NCBI GenBank assembly: GCA_950295325.1
Contig: OX485806.1
Location: 18,538,001-18,602,000, forward strand
DNA: 64,000 nt
Origin: Polytrichum commune
Lineage: Eukaryota > Streptophyta > Polytrichopsida > Polytrichales > Polytrichaceae
Direction: 5' to 3'
A program made the position numbers and the translations under genes. The notes under the pieces are model-generated. The model was not told the DNA's origin and did no database searches. It saw nothing but the letters and a program-made list of their open reading frames with translations. Positions 22,336 to 60,067 of the stretch are shown here, in pieces. Within the stretch, counting starts at the first letter, position 1; every line of letters begins with the position of its first letter.

Positions 22336-23235
22336 ATGGGAAGGAAATAAACCAATTTGCATGTTCAAAATCCAACATCAACATCTATAAGATATGGAGA
22401 TCTTCAGTGGGCCAACAAAACTAGGCAAGGTTTTGCCCATTCTACTTCCGTACTCTTTGCTTTTATTTTGTGGGAACGTGTTTCGGATTTCATCGAAGGG
22501 CAATATTTGGGAGAGCACGGAAGAGTACAATGGAACATTGAGAGGACAATTGTGGGTGAAACTAATATTCGACGTCCTCAAATTGATTCATTCATATCAC
22601 ATACGTATTATGAATGTGCATATGGGCCAGAAGATCATAGACATGATCTAATACACAAAAGATCTACAAAAATGGGTTGTCTTGCTCGTTTCTCTATAAA
22701 ACAACTATACAAATTTTCCCATATCGCAAAGGTTGCCTATTATGTTGTTGAACATAAAAGGCTAGATGGATCAATAGCTCACGGTCTCCAAGATCCATCC
22801 TCAAACTCTAGAAAATTTCAATACGAACATCGGATTAGTAAAGCTCTTATTAGTTGGGTTAAAGACCAATTACACAAAGGTCACACTCCAAAATATATTT
22901 ATGAGGTGCACAAGAAAATTTGGATAGACCGAGTTAAACACAAATTGCAAACATCAAAAGACGATTTTCTTTCTTTATGGGATATTAGATATTATGAGGG
23001 ACGACAAATGATGGGTGTTTGGTACCGAAATAAAAACGATGCCTTAAATGTTCATATGTGGACACTTGAAAATCAAGACTCCGTATTTTTCTCTCAAGAT
23101 AGAGATGATGTCGTAGGATATCCTCTCATTTTAGGCATTCAAATGCAATGGCAATTCCAGGCGATGTTGAGATGGGCTAATACCGGACCAATTTCGATGG
23201 ATGCCACATTTGAGTGCTCAAATAAGTCCCCCTAA
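22336..23235 (+). pseudogene. N-terminal part of a Mutator-like (MULE) transposase
   Basis: An ATG at 22336 directly follows an acceptor-like GGTTTGCAG and is in frame with the 292-residue open stretch, but a TAA at codon 5 interrupts it (one C-to-T change from CAA). The protein has a FAR1/WRKY-GCM1-like zinc-binding region (Cys residues in YYECAYG and KMGCLARFS, later His residues in EHKRLDG), then the pre-catalytic helix region, and stops immediately after ISMDATF, where the first catalytic Asp of the DDE domain is expected. The rest of the catalytic domain and the SWIM finger are missing. Assignment rests on remembered family layout. It is a dead fragment. Confidence 0.65.
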
Positions 23236-24183
23236 TCAACTTGAATGTCGAGCTCTTAATGGTTAGCATATTTGAACATGGACTCCAAACTTTCATGTAC
23301 ATGTTCAGTTTTAATTTCCAGATCTACACCTAACCGCACACTACTCCAACATAGGTGTCCAATTATTGTTGTGTTCTTCTTAGGCACGTTCACCTTATAA
23401 TGTTGAGCTCATGAAATGACTTGGTGAAGTCATTATGGAAATGATGTGACCTTCATGCTTAATAGATAGTTGTAGTTTCCTAATATTGAATATAGAATCT
23501 ATCACCTTGGAAAATTGTTGAATCAACTACTGGGTTTAGATTCGACCAAATAGTCTTATCATGGTGGATGAAATACTAACATGAAAAGTGTTCATTTGGG
23601 TCGCGATGATTGTCTAGTTGCATTGGAAATAACATGTGTTCAACATTGGATCTTCCCCTTGGACTTCCTTGACTTTTCCGACGAACACCTTACATAAAAT
23701 AAATGGTCATCTCACATCAAATGTGTAATAAGATCAAATACTCACTCACATTAATTTCTTACTTATACAATTCATAACATTATTCAAATCCATAACCCAT
23801 GTTATGCGGGACTTGTTTGTTTGAGCAAGTATCGTGTTACAATTGAGCTTTCAAGTTGAAAGCTTCAACAATGTTGACTCGATGCCATGATGGATCGAAT
23901 GTGAAATGACTATGACAAGTTCTTTACAAACCATTTGTTCATAACCACACACAACATCATTTGTTTCAAGGCGATACATACATTTAGAGTATTTTGGTTA
24001 CTTTCTAGTTGAAATTAGGCAATATTATAACCGATATTTTGAGTTAGGAATCAAGAGTCATGACTAAGTTGTTCAAAACATATGAGCTCTATAATATTCT
24101 TGCTAGCGCTAGTAGAAGAGGCGGACCACAATGTGATATTTGTCACGTACCACTACATCAAAATTAGTTTATTATTATATCTA
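23236..24183. other. AT-rich spacer between the two transposon-like genes
   Basis: No coding sequence or clear element ends were identified. Confidence 0.4.
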
Positions 24184-26453
24184 TTAAACTTCATTGTCAT
24201 CGCTATATATTTCTTCCATTAATTTTGGATTCCGTGCCGCGTAGCTAGCACACACTTCCGCAATACGTTGGGTGCGTTGCGGTGCCGTTGTGTCATATCG
24301 GATTCGGTGTGCTTCTACAATAGATTTGACATACTCTTCACGTCCCACTTCCAATCTATGATACAACATACACATAGCATAAGATACAACATATAAATAA
24401 ATAAATGCAAAAAAATTGATTGAAATTATAAAACTTCAAATATAAATACTTACAATCTTGTGTGCTTTATTTTCTTGTTCCAATGAAGAAGCTCCATTAC
24501 AAAATGTTCGCGGGATGGTTCACGTTGTCGTGATGTGGGCCGACTACTAGTTAGAACTTAGGCATTTTATATGTTATTAATATTTTTAAATTGATATTTA
24601 TATGATGATGTAAGTTAGTTGTTTAAATTGAAAACCGGTCTTAAGTTCAAGACCGGGTGACTCGGTAGATCGATGTGGTAGGTAGAATTTGGGAAAGATA
24701 ATATTTACCGGCGGACCGTTACCTAACTACCTAGGGGTTTTAGAAGGCCTAGCCTTTTAGTTTCCTATTTGTTAGCGGGATAAGGTCTCTAGAAGCCTTA
24801 AACCCGAACCTTCCTATTAACTTGCCGGATTAGCCTTTAATCCAAAACTATCATATTTCTAGCGGGATAAGGGTTCTAAAAACCTTTAACCCAAACCTTT
24901 CCTATTTCTAGCAAGATAAGGATTCTAGAAACATTTTACCCAAAAGGTCTCCTATTAGTTAGCCACTTGGGGTTCTAGAAATCCTTACCCCAATGGTTTT
25001 CTATTGGCCGAAGGAGGCAAGGTAGAAGAGTATTTAAGGGTTGTTAGAAGTGTATTAAGGGGAGAACGTTAGCATTTGGAGTTAGTATTTGTATAGAGTT
25101 GAAGGAACTTTGAGCATTTTGAGAAGAAGAAGTGTTTAGGAAGCTCATATATATACAAGAGGGTAAGGGGGTGAGAGTTTTAGAATGACTAGGTTGCACT
25201 AAGTGCACTATTTGTATTGTTTCATTCATTATTAAGTGACCAGAACTTTGGAATGAAAGATTTGTGAATTGTGGATGATTAGAATATTCGATTGTTATGA
25301 AAATTTGAGAGGATGTTTTTTATGAGATATAAAAGTAGAGGTAAAAATTTGGAAGCTTCAGTCTTTGGGAAGAAGTTATAAAAAGTTGAAGTGAAGGGTG
25401 TCTAGGAACAAAAGCAACTAGGATAACAAAGTTTGAAAATATGGATCTTTTTTATTATTATAGCTATGGCTACAAAAATTGGACACTACCTTTTGATCTT
25501 ATCTATCTATTGTGGGTCAAAATTTGAGATTGATTGGACTTAATAGTTAGAAGTTATTAGAGTTTTAGTGACCGGATGTTATACCACAACATTCATGCTA
25601 GGAAGTTAGAGTTAGAAAAACATGCATAACTTTTTAGTATGAGCTCCGTTTGCGCTGAAATTTGGTGTGGATACTTTTAGTAAGGTACTTAATAAGTTTG
25701 CCAAGTTTCACTTGAAGAGAGTGCGTTAGGTGAGAGCTATACTATTCTGAAGTTTAGTAGGACAATATTGAGAGGGATTTATAACAAGGTTGTAGGAGAA
25801 GGGAAAAATACTATAAATTTGTAAACACTACCATAAAAAAGAGGAGTCCCGTGCTTACCGGATAGTGCACATTTTTCTTGACAACGTTCTTCCCACGTAG
25901 ATCCAACACCCGCAATACCTTTTGTGGATGTCAGATACTCGGCAAAGTCGGTATCAATAATGAGTTTGTTGAACCGGGATGGAGAAATGTGATCTCCCCA
26001 TTCTAAAATTGCCAAGAACTTCTCTACCAATGGATCCAATACACAAGCAAGCATTGGTTTCTGTTTGTCAAAGTGAGGAGCATCCATTGATGACAATATC
26101 TCCCACGCTTTGGTTGCCTATTTCAACCATTTTTTGTCTTGTTGTTTGAATTTTTTCTGTTTTCGCGCCATCTCATCGCTCAAAACAAGGGCATTGAACT
26201 TCCGGTAATTTTGAATGCGAGGTTTGAAAATAGCACCTTTAGGACGTCCAGTGGTATCCCAAGGCACATGAAGCATATATGACAACATATGCTTGCGAAA
26301 ATGGTTTTTGGCAGTATACCATTTGGATTTGCAACCATTGATTAAACACAAATATTTGTCTTCGTTTGCCGATAAAGTTCAATGCTCATTCTTTATTGCA
26401 AGTGGAAGACTGTTTGGATTCTCCACAAGATTGGCGGGCGTTGATGGAGCCAT
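24184..26453 (-). pseudogene. Three-exon C2H2 zinc-finger gene with two nonsense codons
   Basis: Exons at 26453-25859, 24556-24454 and 24355-24184 join in one frame across GT-AG introns (donors CCG/GTAAGC and GATT/GTAAGT; acceptors CCTAAG and ATCATAG), giving about 290 codons. Near the N-terminus is a C2H2 finger (C-x4-C-x9-H-x3-H, CLINGCKSKW then FRKH). Downstream are a Lys-rich helix (ARKQKKFKQQDKKWLK), a segment containing LVEKFLAILEWGD, and an acidic end. Two stops break exon 1: TGA at 26379-26381 and TAG at 26118-26120, both one C-to-T step from sense codons (CGA, CAG). I do not recognise the family; it may be a transposon accessory protein or a host gene. The first intron holds a 50-bp tandem repeat. 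Confidence 0.6.
24764..25003. repeat. Tandem repeat of about 50 bp, five degenerate units
   Basis: Units start CCTATT and share TAGCGGGATAAGG and TTCTAGAAAC. The second unit is shorter. It lies in the 1.3-kb intron of the zinc-finger pseudogene. The surrounding intron has LTR-like traits (a TATTTAAGG box near 25032), but no paired ends were found. Confidence 0.75.
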
Positions 26454-26533
26454 CTACACATAAAGAAACAAAAACATTTGTATTAGCTTGACAACACGTG
26501 ATAAAAACCAAAATGTGACGAAGGCAACAAAGA

Positions 26534-26702
26534 AACAATCTGATTTAATATGCTATACGTGACAGTTTACACCTAAAATTGACGCAAGAAAGAAGGAACA
26601 ATCTGATTGTATACGCTATACGTGACACAGTTCCTTTAAACTTGACGCAAGAAAGAGGGAACATTATGATTTCAGGTTTTATACGTGACATTAAACATGA
26701 CA
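26534..26702. repeat. 63-bp tandem repeat, about 2.7 units
   Basis: Units begin at 26534, 26597 and 26660, each opening AACA-T-TGATT and containing TATACGTGACA and GACGCAAGAAAGA. It sits just upstream of the zinc-finger pseudogene start on its strand, so it could have been promoter-proximal. Confidence 0.85.
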
Positions 26703-27652
26703 ACAACAATATGTGGAAGCCAGAAATTTTCTTATTACACAAATTGAAATGAGGGAGGCGAAGTTCAAAGAAACACACGGCCTGTGCAATATTATCAAAA
26801 ATGTGGATTCTGCTTCCATAAGTTGGAGGATATGTTCTGGAGAATCTACAATGTTTTGATAACCTGTAAAGAGAGTTGATTCAGCCTTGATCTTTGACAC
26901 ATTCATTTTGACCTTGCATAGTTTTTCATGAATAAGAGATACCCTCTAACTCCATCTCATTCTGAATCCATGTTTGCAAACTACAGCTCTAAATAGTAGT
27001 TTTCAGCTCAGGATAACTAACATGGAAGGGGCTGCCAGAAATTTCAAGAGCAAGTGGAAGGACCTCAATTCAGATCACAAACCAGGCACCAAGTATTTAC
27101 AACCCCTCCAAAATGCAGCCTACATGCTTTGATCCTAGTACGATCAGCCTACACCGTGTATAAGCTAGTACACACAACACCCTTGGCTTAAAATTGCTTA
27201 TGTCCATCCAACCAGGTCTATTGCTGTTGAGATCTGATTTTTTTTGCCATGTTCCTTGGTCACAAAAGTCACTCAAAGATCTTTGGTATCACCTGCATAT
27301 TTGGGACTTTCAAAACTTGGTATATCAACATTTGATGTACATGATACCCACTTGCAGAAGAGTGGCACTATGGTTCCAAACAATGTTTCAATTTGGCCCC
27401 TTTCTCATATTGAAGCATGCAAGGATTGAGCACTTGAATAAATTGCACACTCCACATACCATGGGAAGTAATGCAGATTGAAGAAAGTCATGCACAAAAT
27501 CATCCTGCGAAACTTGGGGTAGTTTAGTTGATGCTGCTGGGGATTTCGCAAGTCTCCTTGCTCTGACACCATGTAAGAAATGCACTCAACATGCAAAGGA
27601 GGCACATTAAAAAACGATCCTCCCTCTGATCATCACAAATCACTTTCCACTC
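26703..27652. other. Spacer, probably including the 3-prime untranslated region of the RS-domain gene
   Basis: On the minus strand this follows the RS-domain stop codon. A TGGTGTCAGAGC string at 27560-27571 (minus strand) resembles an initiator-tRNA primer binding site but has no paired LTR. No other gene is supported. Confidence 0.35.
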
Positions 27653-27891
27653 TTAACTCCTCACACGGCTCCGTGAGCGTGGTGATCGAGGGTAAGACCT
27701 AATGGGGCTCCTGCTCCTGCTTCTGTATCGGTATCGGACTGGAGACAGACTTCGGCTATGGCTTCTACTACGACCCCTTCTGCTGCGTTGGGCTATTCGG
27801 CGGGTCTCTGCAAGCTTCTCCTGCCGCTCTCTCTCTTGCTCTCTCCTCTTTCCAGCCTCTGAAACCGTATCCTTCCCCCCTGTCGTGTAAA
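27653..27891 (-). CDS. Terminal exon of an RS-domain (SR-type) protein
   Basis: On the minus strand an acceptor (CGATCTTAG) precedes an open stretch to a TAA at 27653-27655, entered in phase 1. It encodes a charged region (KRREQERERQEKLAETRR) then a classic Arg/Ser domain (RSRRGRSRSHSRSLSPVRYR and RSRSRSPIRSYPRSPRSR). RS domains mediate protein-protein contacts in spliceosome assembly and nuclear speckles. The RNA-binding or other upstream domains are not in this window; the DNA immediately 5-prime of the exon is intron-like and then the retrotransposon, in the same orientation. Either the retroelement lies in a long intron or this exon is an orphan. I cannot say which SR-type gene it is. Confidence 0.55.
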
Positions 27892-28312
27892 CTAAGATCG
27901 TTAAACACAACAGATCGAGTGTCGTCGTCAACATCAATTAGCAAAATAAAATAGCAAACTAAAATGCTAAACAACCACCTCTTCAAGTGCCCCCACTAGC
28001 AGATAAGGAGCCCCTCCAATCGGCTAGGAACACACACACTCATCGGTAGAGTTGTTGAACATGATGAAGTTGTTGCTACATCTATACATATTCAATTGGG
28101 TAGTGGTAATCTAAGGAATTAAACTCATGATTGAGAAAGTAATCCAAGAACTATAGGCTGGGTGCAATTTGAGCCCCATCCTTAATCGCCTTCAACCATT
28201 TAATGTTGAATTCTTGGATAACTCTTTCAATGTGGTCTTAATTCCATAAAATTTCCAACCAACTAAATAACAATTTCACCACTAAAACATGAGGTAAACA
28301 TCCACAAAATTC
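27892..28312. other. Sequence between the RS exon and the retrotransposon pol stop
   Basis: Expected to contain the retrotransposon 3-prime untranslated region and, if intact, the 3-prime LTR. I could not find a copy of any part of it at 35555-37500, so an LTR is not demonstrated. It may be intron of the RS gene. Confidence 0.35.
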
Positions 28313-31300
28313 TCAATCATGACCATTAACGGCCACGGAATGAGAGGCTTTCCGACAACGAGGACAAACCCAATTGCCAGAAGAAAGAGTAAAAATGGGA
28401 GGTGTCAAACATGCCATGTGCCATCCACGTTGACATTGGTCGCACAATAACATTGTTGCAGCTCCTTTCTTCTCTCCACAAACATAACAAGGCAGACCCT
28501 GTGGTACAACCGCCAACTTGGGATGCACAGAGCCGTCGATGGGAAGGTGACATGGAGCACAATTCTTTGAATGCTCACGACATTCCCGTCCATCCTTCCC
28601 TTCAAGCAATAATATACCACTTGACAAGACATCTTTTACCCGCAAAATCGTGCGCCCAGCCTTGACATCCAATGTCGTAGGCGCCTCCCGTTGCAAGTAA
28701 ACATAATCCCCCTTGGAAAATCTACGAACCTGAGGTCGATAAGCTCCACTTCGGATCCGGGCATACCGTAATGTATCACGATGTTGAGCAATATTTAAGT
28801 TCTCCATAGCCATAGGCATGGCCTTTTGGAAGAACGCTGCTCGGTCATGAAGACATTGAGCCCAAACATCTGGATCATCCAAGTTTACCACGGGAGCCAA
28901 TTTCTCTCGCACTGAGCTAGGTAAAATTGGTTCCCGCCCATACAAGAGTTGGTAAGGACTATAGGATGCCAAAGATGCTTGCCTGCTGAAACGATAACCC
29001 ATTGCTATCCATGGTAACATCAAGTCCCAATCGCGATGGTTGCCATGAAGCAATCCATACTTCCGCAAACCGCGCTTAACTGTCTGAACAACTCGTTCAG
29101 CTAAGCCATCTGCCTCAGGGTGATCTCTGGAAGTTGTCCGATGATCAATCAAAGCCTTGGTACACAAAGCCTCGAAAGATCCAAGGAATTCTCTCCCTTG
29201 ATCCGTCAACACCTCTGCAGGTGCTCCAAACCGTGCCAAAACTCGATCAAGAAATGCCATAGCCGCCAATTCTGAGGAATTTTGGGGAAGAGCCACGAGT
29301 TCAATCCACTTACTAAAATGTTCCACCATTACAAGCACATACTTGGAACCACGTGGAGTGATAGTAAGCGGTCCGGCAAAATCCAAAGACCAACGATATC
29401 CCAAGCCCATAATAGGTAAAGGCTGAAGTTGAGGTGACAAAGTATTAAAACTTGACCTGACCCGGTCACATACTTCACACCGAGAAACATAAGTGGCAAC
29501 CTGTTGATACATACCAGTCCACCAATATTGGTTGCGCAACATAGAGTGCGTCCTTCGCACTCCAAAATGTCCAAGCTCCTCGTGCACTTGCCGCACCAGA
29601 GAAGCTCTTTGATCTGGCCTTGGAACGATGCGCCTCGTTCCGTTCGGCCACACACAAAATAACAAGCTGTTTGCCCAACGAAACCTTGTTATCCGGTGAC
29701 TAACTCTATCTCGCTCCATAGAAGATAGTCCAAGAGGAAATATCCCTTGTTGAAGTTTGTGCAAGACCGCCTGGTCTTCCCACACATCACTAACAACGAG
29801 AAATTTATCAATCTCCTCATCTTGCTCTTCCACAAGGATTTCAGCAGCCAATCCCGACATCATTGTGAGATACGTGGCAGCATGCCAACCCGGCATTGCC
29901 TCACGATCACAATCTCCATGCCACCTGGCTCCAGTTAAATCCTCATCTGAAGGACTTGGATTGCGAGACAATCCGTCTGCATCCAAGTTGGCAATTCCTG
30001 CTCGGTGAACAACTTCAAAATCATATTCCTGAAGTAACAATGCCCACCTAGCAAGTTTTCCGCTGAGCTTATCTGATTCCATAAGCCATTTTAAAGGCTG
30101 ATGATCAGTCACCAAAGTAAACTTCTGCCCATACAAATAAGGTCGAAAATGTGCAATGGCCCAAACAGCCGCCAAGGCCTCGCGTTCATAAGAAGAATAA
30201 TTAGATTCAGCACTATTATTACTTCTAGATGCATAAGCCACCACATATTCCTTTCCCTCTTCATCTTTCTGTGTCAATACTGCTCCCAATCCCACTGCAT
30301 TCCAATCCGTGTGCAATTGAAAAGCTCTAGACACATCCGGGCGTCGAAGCACTGGCGCTGAACCGAGCCTCTGCTTCAATGTATCAAATGCCTGTTGTTG
30401 TTCCCGACTCCAAATCCATGGTTGGTCTTTCCCCGTGAGAATGGTAAGCGGTTTGGCAATCAAACTAAAGTTTTTGACAAACCTCCTATAATAATTTGCC
30501 AATCCTAGAAATGCACGAAGCCGTGGTACATCACTAGGTGCGGGAATTTTGTGCAAAGCATCCACCTTCGCCTGTTGCACACCAAGACCGCCAGGAACAA
30601 TCATGTGGCCTAAATAGGGCAATTGATCATGGAAAAACTTACATTTCCCATGATGTAAACGGAGTCCCCACCGTTGAAGTCGTTCAAATACCGCTTGCAA
30701 ATGTCTCACATGATCCTGTGGACTGTCACTAAAGATGATAACATCATCAATGTAACATCTAGCAAACGGCAAACCAGCCAATAATTGGTCCATCACCCGC
30801 TGAAATTCAGCTGGTGCATTCTTGAGACCAAATGGCAGAAATTTCCAATGATAAAGTTGATCCTTGCCATCTTTATCAATTCCCCAAAATGCGGTCTTCA
30901 CCCGATCACCCAACAACAAAGGTAATTGGTGATAACCAGACCTCAAATCCAAAGTGCTGAAGATTCTAGAAAATCCTAGTGCATCAAACAACTCCTCCGG
31001 CATCGGCATTGGATATCGATCCGACTTGGTCTTGCGGTTGACTGGACGATAATCACCACAAATCCGTTTTTCCGTCCAGTTGCCAAAGATATCCTTCTTT
31101 GACGGCATAACCGTGGCACAAACATACTCTCCATTGGAGAGTTCAATCAATTCCGCTGCCAATAACTCTTGACATCGAGTTTGAACACCCAACCTTTCAG
31201 AGGTACTAAGTCTGTACGGCCGTCTGAAAATAGGGTGGTCGTCCTCGAGTTAAATACGAACATGTTTACCTTTATATCCTTCAAGATCATGAAGACTAAA

Positions 31301-31747
31301 GGCAAAACAATTACGGTAAGAGCGAATAAATGCCCGTACCTTTCGTGCTTCGGCACCAGTAAGCTTTGGCCCCACTTCAATTGGCCAATCGTCAAACTCC
31401 GTGGTTTCCTTCTTCATAGAAGGATTGCCACTTGGTGCCAGCACAGCCTGTGATTGCTAGTCCGTGGAGAGGGCAACACCTTTGCCCCCATCATTTGCAC
31501 TTGAATCCAAATGCGTATCCTCTCCACTACAATCAGTTTGTGTAGCTAAATAGCTACCCACATATGAAGTATCACCAAGAAATAGAAGTGGAATCATTTT
31601 ATGGGCCTCCAACTTTCCAAACTCTTGGGCCAAAGCCGAAAAAACACGTTGGGCTCGAAGCTCTTCCGCAACATAAAGTTTCAAAGGAAATAATCCCTCG
31701 GTGTCATTGACCTAAATGTGATCATTGGATTGCGGCTCCATTGCCCC
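28313..31747 (-). pseudogene. Pol: reverse transcriptase, RNase H, integrase and PHD finger, with three nonsense codons
   Basis: In frame with gag after the TAG; an ATG at about 31739 in a GCAATGG context could restart translation. In-frame stops lie at 31712-31714 (TAG), 31457-31459 (TAG) and 31250-31252 (TAA), before the open 959-residue stretch from 31192. Counting from there: RT has FSTLDLRSGYHQL and YIDD at 147-150 (Ile for the usual Val/Leu); RNase H has TDWN (Asp296) and TDHQP (Asp363); integrase has an HHCC finger (His537, His542, Cys572, Cys575) and the catalytic triad Asp604, Asp664, Glu699. After an integrase tail with a YVYLQ stretch, a PHD finger occupies 901-947 with C4HC3 ligands 901, 904, 916, 919, His924, 927, 942, 945. 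PHD fingers commonly bind histone H3 tails, so it may guide integration, taking the place that a chromodomain has in chromoviruses (inference). Confidence 0.93.
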
Positions 31748-34700
31748 CTAACCATTGTTCTCTGCCCTCAGAGTACGCAATTGGTCATCCATACGTTGTT
31801 GAGCAGCAAGACAAATTCCAATTATCCACACAATGCTGTTAAGATCCATAGCTTGCCCCAATAGGAAACGTCTCTGACATTCCTGAAGCCCGTGAGCAGC
31901 CGTGGTACCTGTAAGAAACCCCATGACGCGTTCCCGCTCATCTGCCGTAGGCTCCTCATAAGTTTGGGTTTTTGAATCCCAAACCATGCCAGGTCCACGA
32001 GATCGAAATACAAAAGACTGTGGATATGTCACAAAAGTAGGTAGTGCACCTTTTGGAATGCCCACCTTATTAATTAATGCAAATGGCAAGGTATCATTCT
32101 TGGTAACTGCCAAGGAAACACGATGATCATCGAAAATGTCATCCACTTTGCGATCCATAAGGCAGGGAATGCGGGCAATCGCTGCTGAAAGCACTCGAGG
32201 TGATACCAAGTTGGTCCAAAACCAACGAGGCCGATGAGCAAAGGATCCCAAAGATGCAGCATCCAGAAATGTTGGAGTACCCAGAATTTGGTTAATGTAC
32301 TCACCATCCTTCACCACTTTGTGCCGGGTATCACCCAATAATGGTACATTTTCGAAAATGTACCCTGGCGGAGTTGATTGGTGGGTAAACCACCATTGCG
32401 TCAATCGCGTCAAATCCGCAAACAAACTAGACCTAGGATCATCCAATCCCTGGCTAGTTCCTGCCCGCGAATGGCCTTGACAAGGCCATCCTGCAAGAAT
32501 CAAATCCACGTGGCCCAACCTTCTCAAATCCTCATCACTAATCATAGTAACATCTTGAGGAAGTTGACCACAACATCCTTGAATGGTAGAGGCTGACAAT
32601 TGTGCGGGGTATCTCAACAACAATTGTTGGATGTGGTGTCGGACGGCTCTGTTGGCTGCATACCCATTGTCCACATGAATATATCGCCAAACTGTAATTC
32701 CAGCTTCCAACACTGCCGCCAAACCTGTGCCAATGCCTCCAAAGATCTCCACAAGGACAATACCTTCAGGTGATGGTTGCCAACGAATGGGTTGAGCAAA
32801 AGAAAATGAGGATGAAGTTGGGGGTGCCTCTCCAAGCTCCAAATCCGCTACAATGTGTCGACAATGGTCAGATAACTCCTTAGGAGTTCGCCATGGTGGA
32901 GGTGGATCCTTGAAATGTCGAGCAGGAATTTGAAAAGATGGTAAAAATTGTTGTTCTGCCACATTACAAGTGTAGTCCATTGTTTCCTCCAATAAAACTG
33001 GAGCACAAGGCAAATCTGCAACTGAACCGCTGCAACCAAACATTGCCTCCGCAACCATAGTCATAGCAGTGGCTGCAAATGTGACGGGAATAAATACCTT
33101 CCTGCCATCTCCAGTGGACCATCCCGGTCTAATCCATGCCTCTTCCGTCCAATTATCCAAACCAAAGCCAAGTGGGTAAAGAGCTTGCTGACCAACAAGT
33201 ATATCATAATTGGTAGCATTAGTAACAACACACTTCATTGACAAATGAGTGTAAGTAGGCCTTGCCCCCACATGAAAAATCAAACGTAGAGGTGCCTTGG
33301 TGTAACCTGTTGCACGTTCAGTGCCCCCTACTGAAGTCACAATAGTGAATGGACAAGGATCCAAGCTTGCTGGCGTCAATCCAAGACTGTCAGCAAGTCC
33401 TTTGCCAATCATAACCGGTTGAGCACCGGAATCCATCATAACTCTCAGTGGTGTAGCACGGATAGTGGGCATATCCGTGCGTGAAACGACAAACAAAGAT
33501 TTGTCGTTCATCAGCCGTACAACTCCAGGTTGCAAATTATGCCGTTCGCGAGCAGGCCTTGCAGAAATGTCTGCAAGATATGCCGCTCCCGACGCATAAT
33601 TCGAAAATGACGTATCCACTGCTGAAATTGATGCTGGAGGAATATCAGTTTGCTTACCAAAAGCAATGATCGCCGCATCCACAAGACTCGCTCGCAAATT
33701 GGCTAAGTCCTCCACCTCCTCAGCCACAGGTACGTCAACCACAGCTTGGGATACTTGAAGGGATGGCAAATCCGCCTTACCTTCTAACATTCTCCCAGCT
33801 AAATGAAAAACTGCAGCAGGCTTGAAATCTGAAGCCATAAACTCCGAACCCGAGAAAATTGGCATATGGAGAATTTTATATGCCAATGCTTGCGTAACAT
33901 CCTTCGAGATGGAATCCCCATCTCTCAAAGGTACAGGGTTTTTAGCCCCAACAACAGTGGTGTCTACCAATCCAAATGAAAGAGGTAAACGTGCTTGACC
34001 AATTTGATCAGCTGGTCCGGCATGGCGAGGATGTAGCACCTCGTGGCTATCCCCACTCGTGGAAGCCACCGCATCTGCCAATGTTTGTGAGCGAGTAGAA
34101 GCCGCCGCCACCACCTCTCCAGCTGCTCCAAACATATACATGTCCGAACCCGAGGTGCCACCACCCACATGCGGCTCAGAAATTTGAGCAAAAGATGCAG
34201 AAGATTTGAGCTTTTGCTCAAGCTCTGCCACCTTAGCCTCAAGACTCTGCTCCCTTGGAGACTTTCCAGTGACATAACTGGCAGGCCGCATCTCAGGATG
34301 AAGTAGGAAACAATGATCCACATCGTGATTAGTGCCACCACAATGGCTACATTTCAATTGTCTCTTCTTAGAATTGTCCCCTGCCCTTACTGGTTCCATC
34401 TTTTGTTTTAATTTTCCCAAAGGCTGAGTTTTCTTCTTCTTAGGACAATTGGGATCATTCTTCGAATGACCAGCTTCTCCACAACCCCAACAATGCAAAA
34501 TCTTTTGCTCCTTGACGGGTTGAGTCTCAGCTAAACTATTAGTAGCTGTGACAATTCTTCTTGGTTTCGGACTCTCTGTCATCCAAGATACCATATCCGT
34601 GGCATCATGTTGGCAAAGAGCCCGATCACATCTCTCAACCACGGCAAACGTTTGTGCAAGCGTAGCTCGGCCCTCGTAGTCGAGGATAATCCGAGGTGAT

Positions 34701-35554
34701 GCCAACTCAAGTAGCCGCTTGTCAATTTTAGACAAAAAGATTTTAACAAGCTGACTCTCAGCAAAAACACCTCCCGACTCCACAGCAAATCGCGCGAGTC
34801 GCGTATACATGGTCCGTGGAGTATCATCCTTCTCTCGGCGGAAATCCTGGATGCGCTGCATCTGGTCTCGCCGAAACCCACCATACTCCACTTCCAAATG
34901 TGCGACAAATTCAGTAAGGGGATTAAACGGAGGTGGTGGACCAACAGCCGTCAATGCTGCCTGTGTAGCACGTGCCACCCGTGAAAGGGTTGCCGTGCTA
35001 CTGCTAGCCACCATTGGCCCAAGTGCCAGTTCTGTGTCCTTAGACTCCGCCGGCGATTCCTCCTCCTTTAAGGTGGGTGGAGCTAAGGTAGCAATCGCCC
35101 CATCTTTAAGGACTGAAATAAGCTCAACCCGGGCCTCCCAATACTGCTCCACCTCCCGAAGTTGTCGCTGATGACCCTCTGTCCAACGTTCATAAGTTTG
35201 GAGTGCCTCGTACTCCAAATGTTGAGGCAGAAGTTCAAAGGCATACCAATCATTGAAATTGGAAGACCTTTGACGTTTCTCCTTAATCCAGGTACGAAAC
35301 CGGAGTTTCCAATCGGGCAAGGAAATGCCCCCAGCTCGACCTGAAAACCGATCACGCACTGAATTGTGGCGATCGTCCTCCATTTCGTCGAACGTGCCGA
35401 CACTCCAAATCCGAAGCCTACTAGTAGTGTCCAACGCCGAAATAGGCTCAAAAGCCTCGTTGGTATCTACCTCTGGCTCAAGATTTGTGGTATGCACGTC
35501 CTCCAAGTAATCTGGTGATGGAGATCGATAATATCGGCTCCTAGTTTGCACCAT
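31748..35554 (-). CDS. Gag-protease-DNA (cytosine-5) methyltransferase polyprotein, 1268 aa
   Basis: The intact frame starts MVQTRSRYYRSPSP. The capsid region (about residues 60-330) precedes two zinc knuckles: a variant CWGCGEAGH at about 355 and a canonical C-x2-C-x4-H-x4-C at about 402. The retropepsin motif MMDSGAQPVMIG has its catalytic Asp at 708, followed by NYDILVGQQAL. The methyltransferase spans about 930-1255: motif I EIFGGIGTGLAAVLEAG (FGGIG 938-942), motif IV AGWPCQGHSRAG with catalytic Cys1025, motif VI FENVPLL (Glu1068), motif VIII HRPRWFWTNL, and motifs IX-X containing RERVMGF and LLGQAMDLNSIVW. The order I-IV-VI-VIII-X is the canonical DNMT3 order, not the circularly permuted order of plant DRM enzymes; HRPRWFWTNL is also DNMT3/DRM-like. 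All catalytic residues are present, so activity is plausible. Its role could be to methylate element or host DNA in the nucleus (inference). Confidence 0.93.
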   Translation of the reverse strand: MVQTRSRYYRSPSPDYLEDVHTTNLEPEVDTNEAFEPISALDTTSRLRIWSVGTFDEMEDDRHNSVRDRFSGRAGGISLPDWKLRFRTWIKEKRQRSSNFNDWYAFELLPQHLEYEALQTYERWTEGHQRQLREVEQYWEARVELISVLKDGAIATLAPPTLKEEESPAESKDTELALGPMVASSSTATLSRVARATQAALTAVGPPPPFNPLTEFVAHLEVEYGGFRRDQMQRIQDFRREKDDTPRTMYTRLARFAVESGGVFAESQLVKIFLSKIDKRLLELASPRIILDYEGRATLAQTFAVVERCDRALCQHDATDMVSWMTESPKPRRIVTATNSLAETQPVKEQKILHCWGCGEAGHSKNDPNCPKKKKTQPLGKLKQKMEPVRAGDNSKKRQLKCSHCGGTNHDVDHCFLLHPEMRPASYVTGKSPREQSLEAKVAELEQKLKSSASFAQISEPHVGGGTSGSDMYMFGAAGEVVAAASTRSQTLADAVASTSGDSHEVLHPRHAGPADQIGQARLPLSFGLVDTTVVGAKNPVPLRDGDSISKDVTQALAYKILHMPIFSGSEFMASDFKPAAVFHLAGRMLEGKADLPSLQVSQAVVDVPVAEEVEDLANLRASLVDAAIIAFGKQTDIPPASISAVDTSFSNYASGAAYLADISARPARERHNLQPGVVRLMNDKSLFVVSRTDMPTIRATPLRVMMDSGAQPVMIGKGLADSLGLTPASLDPCPFTIVTSVGGTERATGYTKAPLRLIFHVGARPTYTHLSMKCVVTNATNYDILVGQQALYPLGFGLDNWTEEAWIRPGWSTGDGRKVFIPVTFAATAMTMVAEAMFGCSGSVADLPCAPVLLEETMDYTCNVAEQQFLPSFQIPARHFKDPPPPWRTPKELSDHCRHIVADLELGEAPPTSSSFSFAQPIRWQPSPEGIVLVEIFGGIGTGLAAVLEAGITVWRYIHVDNGYAANRAVRHHIQQLLLRYPAQLSASTIQGCCGQLPQDVTMISDEDLRRLGHVDLILAGWPCQGHSRAGTSQGLDDPRSSLFADLTRLTQWWFTHQSTPPGYIFENVPLLGDTRHKVVKDGEYINQILGTPTFLDAASLGSFAHRPRWFWTNLVSPRVLSAAIARIPCLMDRKVDDIFDDHRVSLAVTKNDTLPFALINKVGIPKGALPTFVTYPQSFVFRSRGPGMVWDSKTQTYEEPTADERERVMGFLTGTTAAHGLQECQRRFLLGQAMDLNSIVWIIGICLAAQQRMDDQLRTLRAENNG

Positions 35555-35709
35555 AAAATAATCACTTGAGTACCTGCAACTATCTACAAGGTAATGGCAA
35601 CCTGCACCTGTTGCGGGCTATCTAAATGGCAATCCCTTGCCAAATGCCAAGTGTTTATGCCCCCAGAATTCCAAAATTGTGCAAAGGTTTGAGATTGGTA
35701 ATTAAAATG

Positions 35710-35998
35710 AAAAATCAGCGTTGAAAAGGCTCATTTCCAAGGTGATTATGGACTCCAATCAACAAACTAAGTGCACCAATGGACTCCTAGGAAGATTTCA
35801 CACAAATTAGGCTCAAATTTCACTCCGTTCGGAGTTAATTTGCTCCCAAAAACAAAAATCAGCGTTGAAATTAATAATTTCAGCAATGATTTTGAATTCC
35901 AATCAACAATCCAATTACACCATTGGATTCCTTGGCAAATTTCACACAAGATAGGCTCAAATTTCACTCCGTTCAGAGCTAGTATGCCCCCAAATTTG
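35710..35998. repeat. Two tandem units of about 144 bp upstream of gag
   Basis: Units 35710-35853 and 35854-35998 share AAAAATCAGCGTTGAAA, a CCAATCAACAA stretch and GGCTCAAATTTCACTCCGTT. They lie in the 5-prime leader of the retrotransposon and could be promoter or packaging repeats; function unknown. Confidence 0.8.
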
Positions 35999-36054
35999 AA
36001 CCTCAAGTTTGTGAGAATTGGATGCCAAGTGTGAAAGGTGAAAGTAAAAATGTG

Positions 36055-36380
36055 AAAATAAAATAAAATAAAATAAAATAATTGTTTTAATGAAACAAAA
36101 CATTAAATAAAATAAAATAAAATAAACTTTAACTTTAACTTAATTAACTTAATTAACTTAAATGAATTAACTTAATTAATTTAATTTAACTCAACGTAAC
36201 TTAATTAACTTAAACTAATGAACCTAATTTAATTAAGCTAATTAATTTAATTAATTAACTTAATGAACCAACCTAATTAACTAATTAAGTTAACTAATCT
36301 TAATTAACCTAATTAAGTAACTAACTTAATTATCCTAATTAATTAACTAATTAACTAACCTAATTAACTTAAATAACATT
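36055..36380. repeat. AT-rich satellite-like tract, (AAATA)n then (TTAACTTAA)n
   Basis: Begins with AAATA pentamers (36055-36080 and 36103-36125) and continues with over 200 bases of degenerate TTAACTTAATTAA-type units. It ends abruptly at the GC-rich block. Confidence 0.85.
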
Positions 36381-36397
36381 AGCAAATGAAGGCTCAC

Positions 36398-36545
36398 CTT
36401 GAAAGGGGGGCCAGGCTGGCGCCGCCCGCCACAGTGCCAGGCTGCCGCCCGCCCGCCCCTGGCCCGCTGCCACGCCACCGCGGGGCCCGGCTGGCGCCGC
36501 CCGCCCCCGGCCCGGGATTAGCCACCCCCCGCCCCGGGGTGCAGA
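36398..36545. repeat. GC-rich tandem block
   Basis: Repeats of GGCTGGCGCCGCCCGCC and CCAGGCTG-type phrases produce a sharp GC peak between AT-rich flanks. A similar composition occurs at 63700-63990. Potential for strong secondary structure; no gene. Confidence 0.7.
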
Positions 36546-37480
36546 ATTGGAGCTCCAAGAGTGTCCGTGGAGCTCCGGAGCTTCAAAAAAAAAATTAAAA
36601 AAAATTCGGATTTTAAGTTTGGTTTGTGTTTGTTTGTAAATTTAAAAAAAAATTAAATTTTGCTTTTACAAATTGCAAGCAAGAATGATGTGACTTGAGA
36701 ATCTTGAGACCAAATGGAATCTCAAGATTCAACCATCAACACTTGAAGAAAACACAAAGAAAAAACAAAAGAAAAATGGGAAGATTTCTCTCAAAATCTT
36801 CTTGAGGGTTGCAAGAAATGACAAACTAAGCTTTCAAACACTTGTATCACTCATTTGCTCTCAATACTGGACCATTCTAGCTCAGAAATACAACCAAAAA
36901 TGAAAAATTTGAATACAATTGTTGTCAAGTATGAGGGTTTCTCTCTCCAAGCTTAAGAAACTAAAATGTCTCCTTATAAAGCTTAAGAAACTCTAAAATT
37001 CACACACAAGAGTCAAGCTATCTCTCACTCCACGAAGGGAGAATCCAAGAGTGCAAGTGGTGGAGAAAGAATGCAAAGGCTTTACTCATAATCTATTACA
37101 CCATAGCCATGAGAAAGCAACAACAAGCTCTCTCTCTCTCAAAACACACTCACAAGACTTGACTTGACAACAATGGCAAGTCAAGAGGCCTTCCTCTCCA
37201 TACAACCCCAATCCTATGTGGAGTTCATCCATGGAGTGGATGAACAACTAACTAGGACTCCCAATGGAGTCCGTTACTCATCCCAACACACATGGACTCC
37301 TAGTGGAGTCCATTTACTCCTAAATTGACGTGACTTAGCCCCCGATGTCACCTCACGTGACACCCCGACTAGGAGCGGCGAAGAGCAGAGCGGAGCGGCC
37401 TGGAGCGACTTGCGGAGGGTAGCGGGGAGAAGCTGCGAAGAAGACGCGTCGAGAGCGTGGAGGAGGCGGTCAGGTGGCGG
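36546..37480 (-). other. Candidate 5-prime LTR or leader of the methyltransferase retrotransposon
   Basis: On the minus strand, upstream of gag, this contains a TATA-like CTTTATAAGG at about 36972-36981, a TC/AG-rich tract near 37128-37142 and a self-complementary TCACGTGA region at 37353-37360. A matching copy 3-prime of pol was not found, so the LTR assignment is a guess from position. Confidence 0.25.
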
Positions 37481-39371
37481 TGGGGGCCAGACTAGGCCTA
37501 AAACGGGCCGAGGGGAACCCGGTCTTGCTGTTTCAAGCCGGCACCGTTTCTTTAGGGTGGGCTGAGTGCGTGTGGGCCCTTAGGATGACAACCCCCACTT
37601 CCATCCGGCCAGGGTACGAGTGTTGCACCTCGTTCACCCTGGCCGGTCAAAAGACCCGCAATGGGAAAACAACTATGGTTCTTTTTCATATGGTATTCTA
37701 CTAGTGCTTGTCAGTAACTATGACAATTTTAAAGGACAACCTTTCAATCCCATTGTCAGTCGTCACACAGATTTTGCCTCCCTTTCCATGTTCATTTGAT
37801 TGAACTTGGAAGTGCCTTGAAGACCAAAGTTCCTCATGTTTTTTCATCTTCTTCAACTCAAAGTTAGGTGTGAATTGTTGCAGAAAGTGATGATAACATA
37901 TGTCGACATGTTGGTGGATCCCAATAACTCGTGACACTTTAAACCCACCCATCATTACGTCTAGAATCCAAGTAATTTTTCTTCTTACTAGAAGGCATAC
38001 GTTTTTTTTAGGTAGACCATACATATAAAGGATGCCTATGTTGACCTATTCCACTTTTAAACTTCACCCCACATTAATAAATGATTCCCTCTCTTTTATA
38101 GCCAATCGTTTTCTAATGAAACCTTGGTGCCCCCCCCCTCCCGGCACAAGCCTCGCACACTACTATTATGTGCAATTTAGTTGTTTATGATTAGGTTGCC
38201 TATTCACATAAGCTACCTTGGGTCAATATGAGCTAGATCACAAAACTTGTAACTTTATTCAATCATCTTTATATCAACCACAATAAAATAAACTAGAGAT
38301 TATTGTATTTTAGTATTTTAATTGTTATTCGTTGTTATGTTAGTAAATATACAACATAGTGTAGGCTAGTGTGAGCCACCTAATTGTACATATCAATGTC
38401 GGTAAGAATGGATACCAAAATTATATGTGTTATGATGACATTACACTATGAGCTCATGATACATTGACCATTCTAGGTTCAATAGTCATTGGGCTTATGG
38501 GATCACTTAAAGAAGTACATGAATCTTCAATTTTAGCTCCTATAACTTTTTCATCTAAATCATGATTTTGAACCTAGAAATATCTTTATATATTATTTGC
38601 AATTGTTAATTGGATGATGCAATTGGATGATGCATATGGATGAGGGCTCATTTCTAGCATGGCTTGCAGGAACGCGGTTCTCGAATTCATTAGCAAGTAG
38701 AGTTGACGGTAAAGAGCCTCAAAGTAGAAGCTCACCTCACACCCACCTTAAACTTGTTTTCATTTCAAAAAGGCAGGATTACTACTCTATGGTGAGTGGG
38801 AAGATAATATAAAGCAAGGCCTTGCACCACCCATATCAGGCCATTGCCCTGGTATCACCAATATTTAGTATAAAATTTGAAACCAAAAATTCAAAAGTCT
38901 TCGGTAATTCAATTACAAATAAAACATTGACAATGTGTGGATGAAGTTTGTTTTGATGAGTTGAACTGTAATACTCTAAGTGCAATGATTGTTGAAGTTT
39001 TTTAGTTGCTAAATTTCATGAATTGGTTTTTCAAAGAGCACTTTTGAGCCAAGATCTTAGAAATTTTTGGTGAATGACTGCAACATGCATGAAGCTAACT
39101 TCCCATAAAATCTATAGTAGAAAATCCATAGTGCAAAAAGTGCATGACCGACGAGAAAGCTGTGTTTGATTTTGTACACTGTCCAAAGAAAGCACGTTTT
39201 GGGGATTAAATTCAGCAGTGTGTCAGATGCACGATGGCTGTCGTATGTCGGTAATGAAAGGCCACCTTCTTAGTCCAAATAGATAGATAGGAACTTTGGT
39301 CTTCTTCAAGACCGACGGGAACATTGAGTTTGTTCAACCCACCCTTGATTTAATGTCGGCCAGAACAAAGA
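37481..39371. other. Unassigned sequence
   Basis: 37620-37700 matches 21160-21235 inverted. A 107-residue minus-strand frame at 37701-38024 has no recognisable domain. A C-tract lies at about 38131-38143. Nothing else is supported. Confidence 0.35.
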
Positions 39372-39679
39372 CTACATTAAACATGATATTTAGTGTTTGA
39401 TACGCTAACCACAAACGCATACACTAAATATCAATAACCCTATGAAAGTAAGTAACATTGACTGTAAACTCAAACACTAAATATCAACTATGGTAATATG
39501 TGGAAGTTACATGTTTGAATTTAGTGTTAGTAAGGATATGGAAAAAAAAATTTGATAAAAGGAGAATTTCAACATATCTTCTAACACTAATTGTCAGAAA
39601 ATTGAAAAGTAGTGTTGAGTAGAGTAGGATGGTCACAACATTAGATATAATCAAACAATAAATATCCTATTTAGTGTAG
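39372..39679. mobile_element. 308-bp relative of the palindromic-TIR MITE
   Basis: The left end CTACATTAAACATGATATTT and the right end (complement CTACACTAAATAGGATATTT) pair, each with the same palindromic core seen at 19868-20267. Two more AACACTAAATATCAA phrases occur inside. The flanks do not show a TA duplication, so the ends may have decayed. Confidence 0.6.
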
Positions 39680-39828
39680 TGTTGCAGGATTTTCCCCGTC
39701 TCAAGGATAAATACCATAGTAACCACTATTCAAGTAACTGAATACAGTTGGACCGGAATTTTTAGAAGTGGATGATTTAATCCATAGGGTTTTGGATTCT
39801 TTTGGTGGATGCCAATTCATGAGTTCAT

Positions 39829-39881
39829 TGGGTAGTTGGAAGTGGATGTTTACCTCATGCAAGTGGTCCGTGTTCGATTCC
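39829..39881 (+). repeat. tRNA-derived sequence, possible SINE head
   Basis: TGGGTAGTTGG at 39829-39839 fits the RNA polymerase III A box and GTTCGATTCC at 39872-39881 fits the B box, 33 bases apart. An anticodon-like CAT lies between. The acceptor stem does not pair, so it is not a functional tRNA gene. No A-rich tail was identified. Confidence 0.35.
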
Positions 39882-40441
39882 CGTTGGATTCGTTTGAGTG
39901 GCATTGAGATACAAGTGACTTGGTGCTGCTAATTGAACGATCACAGATATGAAAGCTTTAACAACCAACATTGGGTGAGTTTTGGGGTATTTAGAAGGCC
40001 CTTGATGTGTGATTCGTTGAAATCGACCGTGATCAACAAAACTAAAATCCAAAAATTCTCAATTCGACATGGTCAACGGTTGTCTTAGTTGAATTGAGAT
40101 TCTTAGTTTTATTTATATTATATTATAGTATAGTATAGTATAGTAGTGATCACTGTTGATTTCCACATATCAAAAGATAGGAGCCTCCTAATTGGTGGTT
40201 GGTTTTTTAAAAATTCTAGCATTTATTGTTTCTAGAAAGATTTTTAGGAAGTATAGGATGTGAATTTGATAAATTGTATGGTAAGGTTTAGGTTGGGGTT
40301 TAATGGTTGTGCGTTTTGGTATGGGAGACCCTTTGATGCACACTATGTTGAGTTTGAATGGAGCTTGCAATGGCACCTTTGTTGGCCGCATGTGCAAGAG
40401 AGAAGCAATGGGAGTATTGTGTTTTTTTGTGGGTTATTGTG

Positions 40442-41870
40442 AAATGTTCCCGCATTCATAAGAGTGTAGCATCTTGATCTATTCTATGAAACCAAAATTT
40501 TTCCTAATTTCCATATGAGTTTTTCTCATATAATATTTTTAATTCTACGGGCATGTATATGATGTTGTCTACATATTAGAAGTAACTAGAGCTATGTGTC
40601 GGGTTCAAGTGAGTTACAAATAGAGCAAGCAATTGATGGAAATGCTTCCCTACCAAAATGACATGGGTTCGTTTTCTAGTGTTTCCCACGTATTGGCTAA
40701 TACGGAATTTTAGCATATAAGTTTCTTGAAAGTCTGTAAGTGCAAGGTTGGACCAAATTTATTGGATAGATCGTTGTCTAAATCTTCATATTCTATTCAT
40801 TGTTTGTCAATGTTAAAACATTGTTTTGCACAATTCTTTCTAGATTTGTTTCATGATCATACTTTATAATGTGATTTCCAAGAGATCTAATGGATCTAGT
40901 ATCATCTTCATTCACTCATTCATTTATGAAGTGGAAGTCTCACATGTGAAAAACACATTGATTGAAACATTTGAAAAGGTTGATGTGGCACAAGATTAAG
41001 TCATCCTTCAACATGCAAAAGTGTTGAGAATATCACATGTACATGGGTGTTATTCGATTAGTTTTTTCATGCTCACCCAATATTTCACTCAATAAAGTTA
41101 CATAACCAAATTTGCGTGGATTAAACAAATCCGTGATGAAGCATTAACAAAAACTATATTGAATATCGGGACCTTCCTTCATTTAGTTAAGATTATCAAA
41201 AGTGCATGTATGTGGGTTATTTAAATGAATACATGAGTCTCCCCAATTTTGTCAACTGTTAAGTCTAAAGTATTTTGTAAGATTGAAGCTTGGGGATGCA
41301 CTCTTCACTGAGAGTGGGGAGCCACGTGCATGCAAGAGTCCTATGTACATCTTTTTCATCACCAAATACCCATCCCATATGTACATTTGGAAGCCAAACT
41401 CTCATCAAAGATTTTTTTGTACCCACATGACACCATACGGGCTAGTATGTTGAGTGCATGCCCCAAGATTTTGAGGATGTAACCTAGTCCAATCTCTTTC
41501 AAACATGTGTCCCCCCCCCCTCCTTATATGTACCTAGTGCAACACCTAATCACAAATTGCTCAATATATAGGTGCACAATTAAGAAAAAGTAACCACATC
41601 ACACCCAAATGCCTTATTTTAACATTATTGCCTTGAGTGTTTGAAGGTCGTTTAGAAAACATAAGGGCGGGGGGGGGGGGGGGACTGAACATGGTCCATG
41701 GTGTACGACGTGGATAAACTAAAGGATATTTGATCAAAATATGGCTTTAAACTATATACATATGCGATGGGCATTTGTTAGACCTAGTTTTGTAGAAATA
41801 TTTAGGGAAGTGTCATGGTAGTATGAATTTTGGGGGAGAGGTAGGTACATTATATGGAAACCCCCTCCCC
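40442..41870. other. AT-rich spacer with homopolymer tracts
   Basis: No gene seen. A C-tract at about 41511-41520 and a G-tract at about 41668-41682 are the only outstanding features. Confidence 0.4.
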
Positions 41871-59618: not shown

Positions 59619-60067
59619 ACTAGCCCTCGGCTGCTGGGCAGTCTCGGTGAACAGTAGAGTTGGTTAGCCCTCGGCTGTTGGTCAGTCTCGGTGAACAGTA
59701 GAGTTGGTTAGCCCTCGGCTGTTGGTCAGTCTCGGTGAACAGTAGAGTTGGTTAGCCCTCGGCTGCTGGGCAGTCTCGGTGAACAGTAGAGTTGGTTAGC
59801 CCTCGGCTGCTGGTCAGTCTCCGTGAACAGTAGAGTTGGTTAGCCCTCGGCTGCTAGTCAGTCTCCGTGAACAGTAGAGTTGGTTAGCCCTCGGTTGCTG
59901 GGCAGTCTCAGTGAACAGTGGAGTTTGGTTAGCCCTCGGCTGCTGGGCAGTCTCCGTGAACAGTAGAGTTGGTTAGTCCTCGGTTGCTGGGCAGTCTCCG
60001 TGAACAGTAGAGCTGGTTAGCCCCCGGCTGCTGGTCAGTCTCCGTGAACAGTAGAGCTGGTTAGCCC
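59619..60067. repeat. 44-bp minisatellite, ten units
   Basis: Each unit reads TAGCCCTCGGCTGCTGGGCA followed by a GTCTC-GTGAACAGTAGAG part. Variants (GTTGGTCAG, GCTAGTCAG, CTCCG for CTCGG) are clustered, indicating local unit spread. An eleventh unit is split by the hAT-type element; its remainder resumes at 60791. Confidence 0.95.

What the first reader, a model, noticed from the sequence alone, without database searches (positions are those of the whole stretch)
31748..35554. Retrotransposon polyprotein with an apparently complete DNMT3-type cytosine methyltransferase between protease and reverse transcriptase
Seen: all catalytic motifs (FGGIG, PCQ, ENV, HRPRWFW, motif IX-X) in canonical order inside the gag frame, in an open 1268-codon stretch. 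Established: plant DRM enzymes have permuted motifs, so this was probably captured from a true DNMT3-like gene, a class known in mosses; cytosine methyltransferases in retroelements have been reported from a few algal lineages, as I recall. Inference: the element may methylate its own or host DNA to survive or to limit host damage. The position between protease and RT, with protease cleavage likely freeing the enzyme, deserves attention.
Basis: partly seen in the sequence, partly recalled or inferred. Interest (0 to 1): 0.92.

Follow-up and report, generated by a model that had tools for sequence, protein, structure and literature searches.

The report
Moss retrotransposon carrying DNMT3-type methyltransferase
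A probable moss genome carries a decayed copy-and-paste mobile element whose coat-protein chain ends in a DNA-methylating enzyme, with its replication enzymes placed behind what looks like a leaky stop codon; such elements are known from algae, and this layout makes their purpose testable in land plants.

Summary
Confirmed, on the minus strand. ORF1 (31748-35554, 1268 aa) is Gag, two CCHC knuckles, aspartic protease, then an unpermuted C5 cytosine methyltransferase, DNMT3-type by sequence, profile and model (pLDDT 89.8). RT-RNaseH-integrase-PHD follow in the same frame (28313-31192). The host is probably a moss.

The kind is known: de Mendoza 2018 described Gypsy-Dnmt3 in Klebsormidium and DIRS/LINE versions in Symbiodinium. 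Found beyond that: (1) 115 of 116 database relatives carry the domain beside retroelement domains, in two orders, before RT or behind RNase H; the two orders separate cleanly in the DNMT and RT trees. Named hosts include Marchantia, Calypogeia and Closterium. (2) In this copy and in a complete relative (L002, 71% aa), gag-pro-DNMT ends at the same in-frame UAG followed by CAAUCA, the tobacco-mosaic-virus-type leaky-stop motif, and pol resumes in frame. So the methyltransferase should be made at Gag level, pol by readthrough. (3) Codon positions show purifying selection on the domain.

This copy is decayed: two extra stops behind the domain, one in pol, no recognisable 3' LTR. Catalysis, readthrough and cDNA methylation are inferred, not shown. 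Copy number and host DNMT3 phylogeny could not be tested.

The parts
31748..35554 (-). ORF1: Gag - CCHC knuckles - aspartic protease - DNMT3-type methyltransferase, 1268 aa; cut short just behind the methyltransferase compared with relatives
34520..35377 (-). gag region (residues 60-345)
   Evidence: 65% aa identity to L002; aligned
34445..34492 (-). first CCHC knuckle, residues 355-370
   Evidence: invariant C355 C358 H363, nearly invariant C370
34310..34351 (-). second CCHC knuckle, residues 402-415
   Evidence: invariant H410 C415, nearly invariant C402 C405
33065..33484 (-). retropepsin-like protease, residues 691-830, DSGA motif
   Evidence: PF13650 E 5.4e-4, below Pfam's cut-off; invariant D708 G710 A711
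31790..32779 (-). DNMT3-type C5 cytosine methyltransferase domain, residues 926-1255 (catalytic Cys 1025)
31748..31750 (-). in-frame stop directly behind the methyltransferase; L002 has a sense codon at the aligned place
31712..31714 (-). second in-frame stop; falls in an alignment gap of L002, which has no stop in this stretch
31451..31459 (-). probable natural end of ORF1: UAG-CAAUCA, a UAG-CARYYA leaky-stop context, identical in L002 3489-3497
31344..31445 (-). possible stimulatory RNA stem, starting 11 nt behind the UAG
   Evidence: z -3.3 (L002: -4.3); rank 4 of 237 and 4 of 235 windows; covariation not above shuffles
31250..31252 (-). in-frame stop within pol; L002 has a sense codon at the aligned place
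28313..31192 (-). ORF2, same frame: RT - RNase H - integrase - PHD finger (the frame continues from 31456)
28355..28489 (-). PHD finger at the C-terminus of ORF2, behind integrase
   Evidence: PF00628 E 2e-9
36956..37362 (-). part of the 5' LTR (homologous to L002 7057-7442); 5' edge near 37362 rests on a marginal match
   Evidence: score 162 against a maximum of 48 in 20 shuffles for 36956-37244; 32 against 31 for the edge
27855..28312 (-). 3' untranslated region and purine-rich tract; homology to L002 stops here, no 3' LTR found
35386..35505 (-). long conserved RNA hairpin at the start of the gag coding sequence
   Evidence: 41 of 41 pairs kept in L002, 6 with both sides changed

Best explanation
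This is a decayed copy of a Ty3/Gypsy-type LTR retrotransposon of a probable moss, belonging to a family of green plants and algae that carries a DNMT3-type de novo cytosine methyltransferase. In the branch that holds this copy the enzyme is the C-terminal part of the Gag-Pro polyprotein. Most ribosomes stop at UAG-CAAUCA and make Gag-Pro-DNMT; a minority read through and make Gag-Pro-DNMT-RT-RNaseH-IN-PHD. The methyltransferase is therefore expected in the particle in Gag-like amount, probably released by the protease, where it can methylate the double-stranded cDNA before integration. Shown: domain order, DNMT3 likeness, conserved catalytic residues, selection, shared stop context and in-frame pol. 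Inferred: readthrough, packaging, catalysis, cDNA as substrate.
Against: The post-UAG stem has only 2 double changes, reached by 116 of 500 shuffles, and synonymous conservation there is borderline (p 0.048), so the signal rests mainly on the hexamer and the frame. Only two DNA copies carry the stop evidence; the other relatives are protein records, which do not show the stop codon. L002 is filed as a cyanobacterial MAG and read as moss by inference. KnitGypsy-Dnmt3 showed no activity in the yeast test (inconclusive, PMC5890265). The coding region shows no CpG depletion (o/e 0.70, L002 0.80, flanks 0.59-0.62), which gives no support to lasting CG methylation of the element. Single-ORF relatives exist without a stop (P0172, P0173, P0175), so readthrough is not general to the family.
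Confidence: 0.6

Rival explanations
1. Pol is reached by splicing of an intron that holds the stop (as recalled for Ogre-type plant elements) or by re-initiation, not by readthrough.
For: In-frame stops between gag-pro and RT are what such introns look like; single-ORF relatives show that the stop is dispensable.
Against: Sequence on both sides of the UAG is protein-like and aligns in frame between window and L002; the hexamer CAAUCA is identical in both; L002 has only this one stop.
Confidence: 0.2
2. The methyltransferase acts mainly on the host genome or on host defence (for example keeping insertion sites methylated and quiet), not on cDNA.
For: Gag-level amount would give much enzyme; ORF2 ends in a PHD finger, a chromatin reader elsewhere.
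Against: Fusion to Gag would keep the enzyme in particles (inference); in Klebsormidium the host methylome is land-plant-like despite the elements (PMC5890265, section 9).
Confidence: 0.25
3. The bryophyte elements took their DNMT3 from a bryophyte host gene, independently of Klebsormidium and of the other algal elements.
For: PMC5890265 describes independent captures in Klebsormidium and Symbiodinium, two of them inside one dinoflagellate genus.
Against: The two queries (window domain, P0027 domain) bring up overlapping sets, and domain orders I and II are each one side of the DNMT tree (75 rows, SH-aLRT 99) and of the RT tree (65 rows, 99), as expected if the domain travelled with the element. 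No host DNMT3 was in the trees, so this is not excluded.
Confidence: 0.25
4. Assembly join or one-off capture in this copy only.
For: None found.
Against: Same order in dozens of independent records and in L002.
Confidence: 0.01

Closest known systems
KnitGypsy-Dnmt3 of Klebsormidium nitens (de Mendoza et al. 2018, PMC5890265)
   Same: LTR Gypsy element with an unpermuted Dnmt3-type domain in its polyprotein, intronless, under purifying selection
   Different: There the domain is described in the Pol polyprotein ORF with DIRS-like terminal repeats (section 9, Fig. 4 legend); here it is the end of the Gag-Pro ORF upstream of a shared UAG, and L002 shows no inverted repeats of 25 nt or more. No row named Klebsormidium appeared (most rows have no name), so kinship of the two was not tested directly.
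SymbioDIRS-Dnmt3 and SymbioLINE-Dnmt of Symbiodinium (same paper)
   Same: Retrotransposon-borne cytosine methyltransferases; two domain orders within the DIRS versions
   Different: DIRS and LINE elements of dinoflagellates, not Gypsy; two DIRS versions active on CG in yeast
Marchantia polymorpha, Calypogeia fissa and Closterium predicted proteins (P0020-P0026, P0029, P0030, P0207, P0209 and others)
   Same: PRO-DNMT and/or DNMT-RT order, 39-48% identity in the domain to the respective query
   Different: Named only 'hypothetical' or 'unnamed' in the databases; Marchantia P0022, P0025 and P0029 run on from DNMT into RT in the annotated protein, which may hide introns
Animal DNMT3A/DNMT3B catalytic domains
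   Same: Fold, motif order, AHRxRxxWxN-type motif VIII (alignment)
   Different: About 20-25% identity; no PWWP or ADD domain found by Pfam; embedded in Gag-Pro
Tobamovirus replicase and murine leukaemia virus gag-pol readthrough
   Same: UAG-CARYYA context (tobamovirus); in-frame gag UAG pol (MuLV) (PMC4132726 and PMC5009743, passages)
   Different: Here the upstream product carries a DNA methyltransferase; readthrough not yet measured

Membership tests
Ty3/Gypsy LTR retrotransposon | Gag, protease, RT, RNase H, then integrase in this order | tested here: met
   protease by weak Pfam match and invariant D708, G710, A711
Ty3/Gypsy LTR retrotransposon | Two direct LTRs with PBS and polypurine tract | tested here: inconclusive
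   5' LTR part by homology to L002; purine-rich tract seen; no LTR pair and no initiator-Met PBS beside the 5' LTR (other tRNAs not tried); L002 closes into a circle by a 127-nt end overlap, as one collapsed LTR would
DNMT3 methyltransferases | Closest by sequence and structure to DNMT3 among solved C5 methyltransferases | tested here: met
DNMT3 methyltransferases | Monophyly with host DNMT3 genes in a tree | not tested
   no host DNMT3, DNMT1, CMT or DRM sequences could be brought in; the genome search unanswered
DNMT3 methyltransferases | De novo CG/CH methylation activity | not testable with these tools
   needs an assay
DRM (rearranged plant DNMT3) | Permuted motif order (recalled: VI-IX-X before I-V) | tested here: not met
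   order is I-IV-VI-VIII-X
KnitGypsy-Dnmt3 type element | Dnmt3 domain fused in a Gypsy polyprotein | tested here: met
KnitGypsy-Dnmt3 type element | DIRS-like arrangement of terminal repeats | tested here: inconclusive
   no inverted repeats of 25 nt or more in L002; window ends are degraded
UAG-CARYYA readthrough signal | UAG directly followed by C-A-R-Y-Y-A, frame open behind | tested here: met
   window and L002; frame open behind in L002, interrupted 69 codons later by a copy-specific stop in the window
UAG-CARYYA readthrough signal | Measured readthrough | not testable with these tools
   needs a reporter

The most novel reading that the evidence does not exclude
A DNMT3 domain was captured by a Gypsy element before or around the origin of land plants and has been kept ever since, in the moss branch as a Gag-level, particle-borne enzyme whose dosage is set apart from Pol by a plant-virus-type leaky UAG; each new insertion would arrive already methylated, a self-imposed imprint that lets the element enter genomes quietly.
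Probability: 0.35. Interest if true: 0.75.

Novelty: new variant of a known kind. Interest (0 to 1): 0.52.

Why it matters
Cytosine methylation is a main weapon of plant hosts against transposons; an element family that carries its own de novo methyltransferase, and keeps the catalytic residues in nearly every record examined, turns that around. Finding it in bryophytes, beside a plausible UAG-readthrough signal, moves the question 'what does a transposon gain from methylating?' from dinoflagellates and Klebsormidium to land plants such as Marchantia, where elements, enzyme and readthrough can be tested genetically. The two domain orders give a natural comparison of the enzyme before RT with the enzyme inside Pol.

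Tried and rejected
Assembly join of a host DNMT3: rejected by the many independent records and L002. DRM origin: motif order and match ranks speak against it; no CMT chain appeared among the rows shown, which excludes nothing. LTR pair: none of 60 nt or more with a 14-nt seed in 23000-41000, none convincing with 7-nt words between the two flanks; an initiator-Met-PBS-like site at 27571 lies outside the part homologous to L002. Own-genome copy count, dN/dS across copies and named control DNMT3s: the genome search did not complete. More DNA copies: viral contigs scanned three times with nothing useful (L001 is a 28% match, not followed); genome contigs once (L002, and L003, a 33% bacterial match, not followed). 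Literature: in searches I saw listings (titles, abstract starts) and, of the papers listed, passages of PMC5890265, PMC12344493, PMC6453930 and PMC9516144; none of what I saw reports such elements in mosses or liverworts. The phrases occur only in PMC5890265; PMC12344493 (passages) repeats 'streptophytes and dinoflagellates' and calls one family Copia. For readthrough in plant LTR elements, searches (12 of 12 listed; 12 of 325 listed) showed no title on a plant Gypsy element. All this covers the held open-licence library only. CpG depletion as a trace of self-methylation: not seen. dS between window and L002 is saturated for most domains (NG86 undefined for 7 of 11 regions, DNMT among them; LWL85 gives DNMT dN 0.252, dS 1.94), so I rely on codon-position differences. 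An Rfam scan of 27500-38000 gave no match. Synonymous conservation near the two RNA elements is only borderline (p 0.051 and 0.048).
Full report
What is there. The reported stretch is a 1268-codon open frame on the minus strand. It encodes Gag, two CCHC knuckles, an aspartic protease and a C5 cytosine methyltransferase. A second frame, 28313-31192 minus, in the same reading frame, encodes RT, RNase H, integrase and a C-terminal PHD finger. Between them lie four in-frame stops, at 31748-31750, 31712-31714, 31457-31459 and 31250-31252.

The host. I infer a moss; the species is not known.

Relatives. Two searches gave 49 and 83 proteins, 116 distinct. By domain order: 56 have the methyltransferase behind the protease and/or before RT (24 of them include RT), 50 have it behind RNase H (42 from RT through to integrase, 3 without RT, 5 ending at the domain), 8 show only DNMT-integrase-PHD, one (Haematococcus, a partial 93-bit match) PRO-DNMT-integrase-PHD, and one is not a retroelement protein. 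The two orders are each one side of the DNMT tree (75 rows, 45 of order II; SH-aLRT 99) and of the RT tree (65 rows, 45 of order II; 99). The trees hold the 64 proteins with both domains long enough, plus the window and, in the DNMT tree, 10 further order-I proteins. They are unrooted and contain no host DNMT3. The window's domain sits in a starred set of 12 rows with liverwort sequences (97). Named hosts are Marchantia polymorpha, Calypogeia fissa, Closterium sp. and, weakly, Haematococcus lacustris; no row was named Klebsormidium, but most rows carry no name.

A complete relative with DNA. The single genome-contig scan found L002 (CADCWO010000201.1), 9285 nt, filed as an uncultured Synechococcales MAG; both of its ORFs of 150 aa or more are the element's, and its ends overlap by 127 nt, as when identical LTRs collapse into a circle. 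It has ORF1 of 1346 codons, one stop, and 1047 codons of pol in the same frame. Identity of the two polyproteins is 71% over 2380 residues. Both have exactly UAG CAA UCA at the ORF1 end. UAG-CARYYA is the readthrough context of tobacco mosaic virus and other plant viruses (PMC4132726, passages). Of the 15 moss-type ORF1 proteins in alignment A1, 14 run 67-125 residues past the window's ORF1 end and finish in a similar short tail; the window's UAG lies 97 residues past it. P0001 finishes differently. In the window the first and fourth stops stand where L002 has sense codons, and the second falls in an alignment gap.

RNA structure. The 117 nt behind the UAG fold with z -3.3 (window) and -4.3 (L002), the main stem starting 11 nt behind the stop; among 117-nt windows along the coding region this place ranks 4 of 237 and 4 of 235. 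Pair counts show 2 double changes, which 116 of 500 shuffles reach: suggestive only. A second, stronger hairpin lies at the start of gag: the lowest z in both elements, 41 of 41 pairs kept, 6 with both sides changed, reached by 4 of 500 shuffles.

Selection. Between window and L002 the DNMT domain differs at codon positions 1/2/3 by 0.27/0.16/0.57, gag by 0.28/0.17/0.62, RT by 0.10/0.05/0.44, integrase by 0.06/0.01/0.51. So the domain is under purifying selection, about as strong as gag and protease and weaker than RT and integrase. dS is saturated; LWL85 gives a ratio of 0.13. The selection belongs to the element lineage; the window copy itself is decayed.

How it probably works. The anatomy suggests that the enzyme is part of the abundant Gag-Pro product and that pol comes by readthrough. 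That differs from the Klebsormidium description, in which the domain is in the Pol ORF (PMC5890265, section 9). Enzyme inside particles would meet the new cDNA; the 95-residue linker between protease and enzyme is the least conserved of the 11 regions compared (43% identity), as a cleavable spacer would be. Methylation of cDNA, and what is gained by it, are inference; CpG content gives no support.

Known or new. Retrotransposon-borne DNMT3s are published (PMC5890265: abstract, passages, sections 9 and 11 read; PMC12344493: passages). Not met in the library searches named above are the bryophyte branch, its gag-pro-DNMT/UAG/pol layout, and the two-order Gypsy family. I rate it a new variant of a known kind.

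Noticed in passing
window 35386-35505 (minus); L002 8658-8777: Long conserved RNA hairpin at the start of the gag coding sequence, 41 pairs kept in two copies with 6 double changes; candidate packaging, dimerisation or translation signal.
   Followed up: partly
window 27600-27860 (minus): An SR-protein-like arginine-serine reading frame abuts the point where the element's 3' homology ends; the 3' LTR appears to be lost there.
   Followed up: partly
window 7782-9944 (+): Intact 720-aa HET-domain protein with relatives in the moss Ceratodon and in fungi; possible fungus-moss gene exchange.
   Followed up: no
L002 (CADCWO010000201.1): A complete plant-type retrotransposon contig sits in a genome record labelled uncultured Synechococcales cyanobacterium, probably a contaminant.
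   Followed up: partly
proteins such as P0033, P0038, P0041, P0044, P0200: A large second branch with the methyltransferase between RNase H and integrase, mostly from unnamed records; P0200 stands for 196 sequences.
   Followed up: partly
window 59621-60067: Tandem array of a 44-bp unit, about 10 copies, 94% matches.
   Followed up: no
window 36129-36377: AT-rich array of TTAACTTAA-like units between the 5' LTR part and ORF1; not compared with L002.
   Followed up: no
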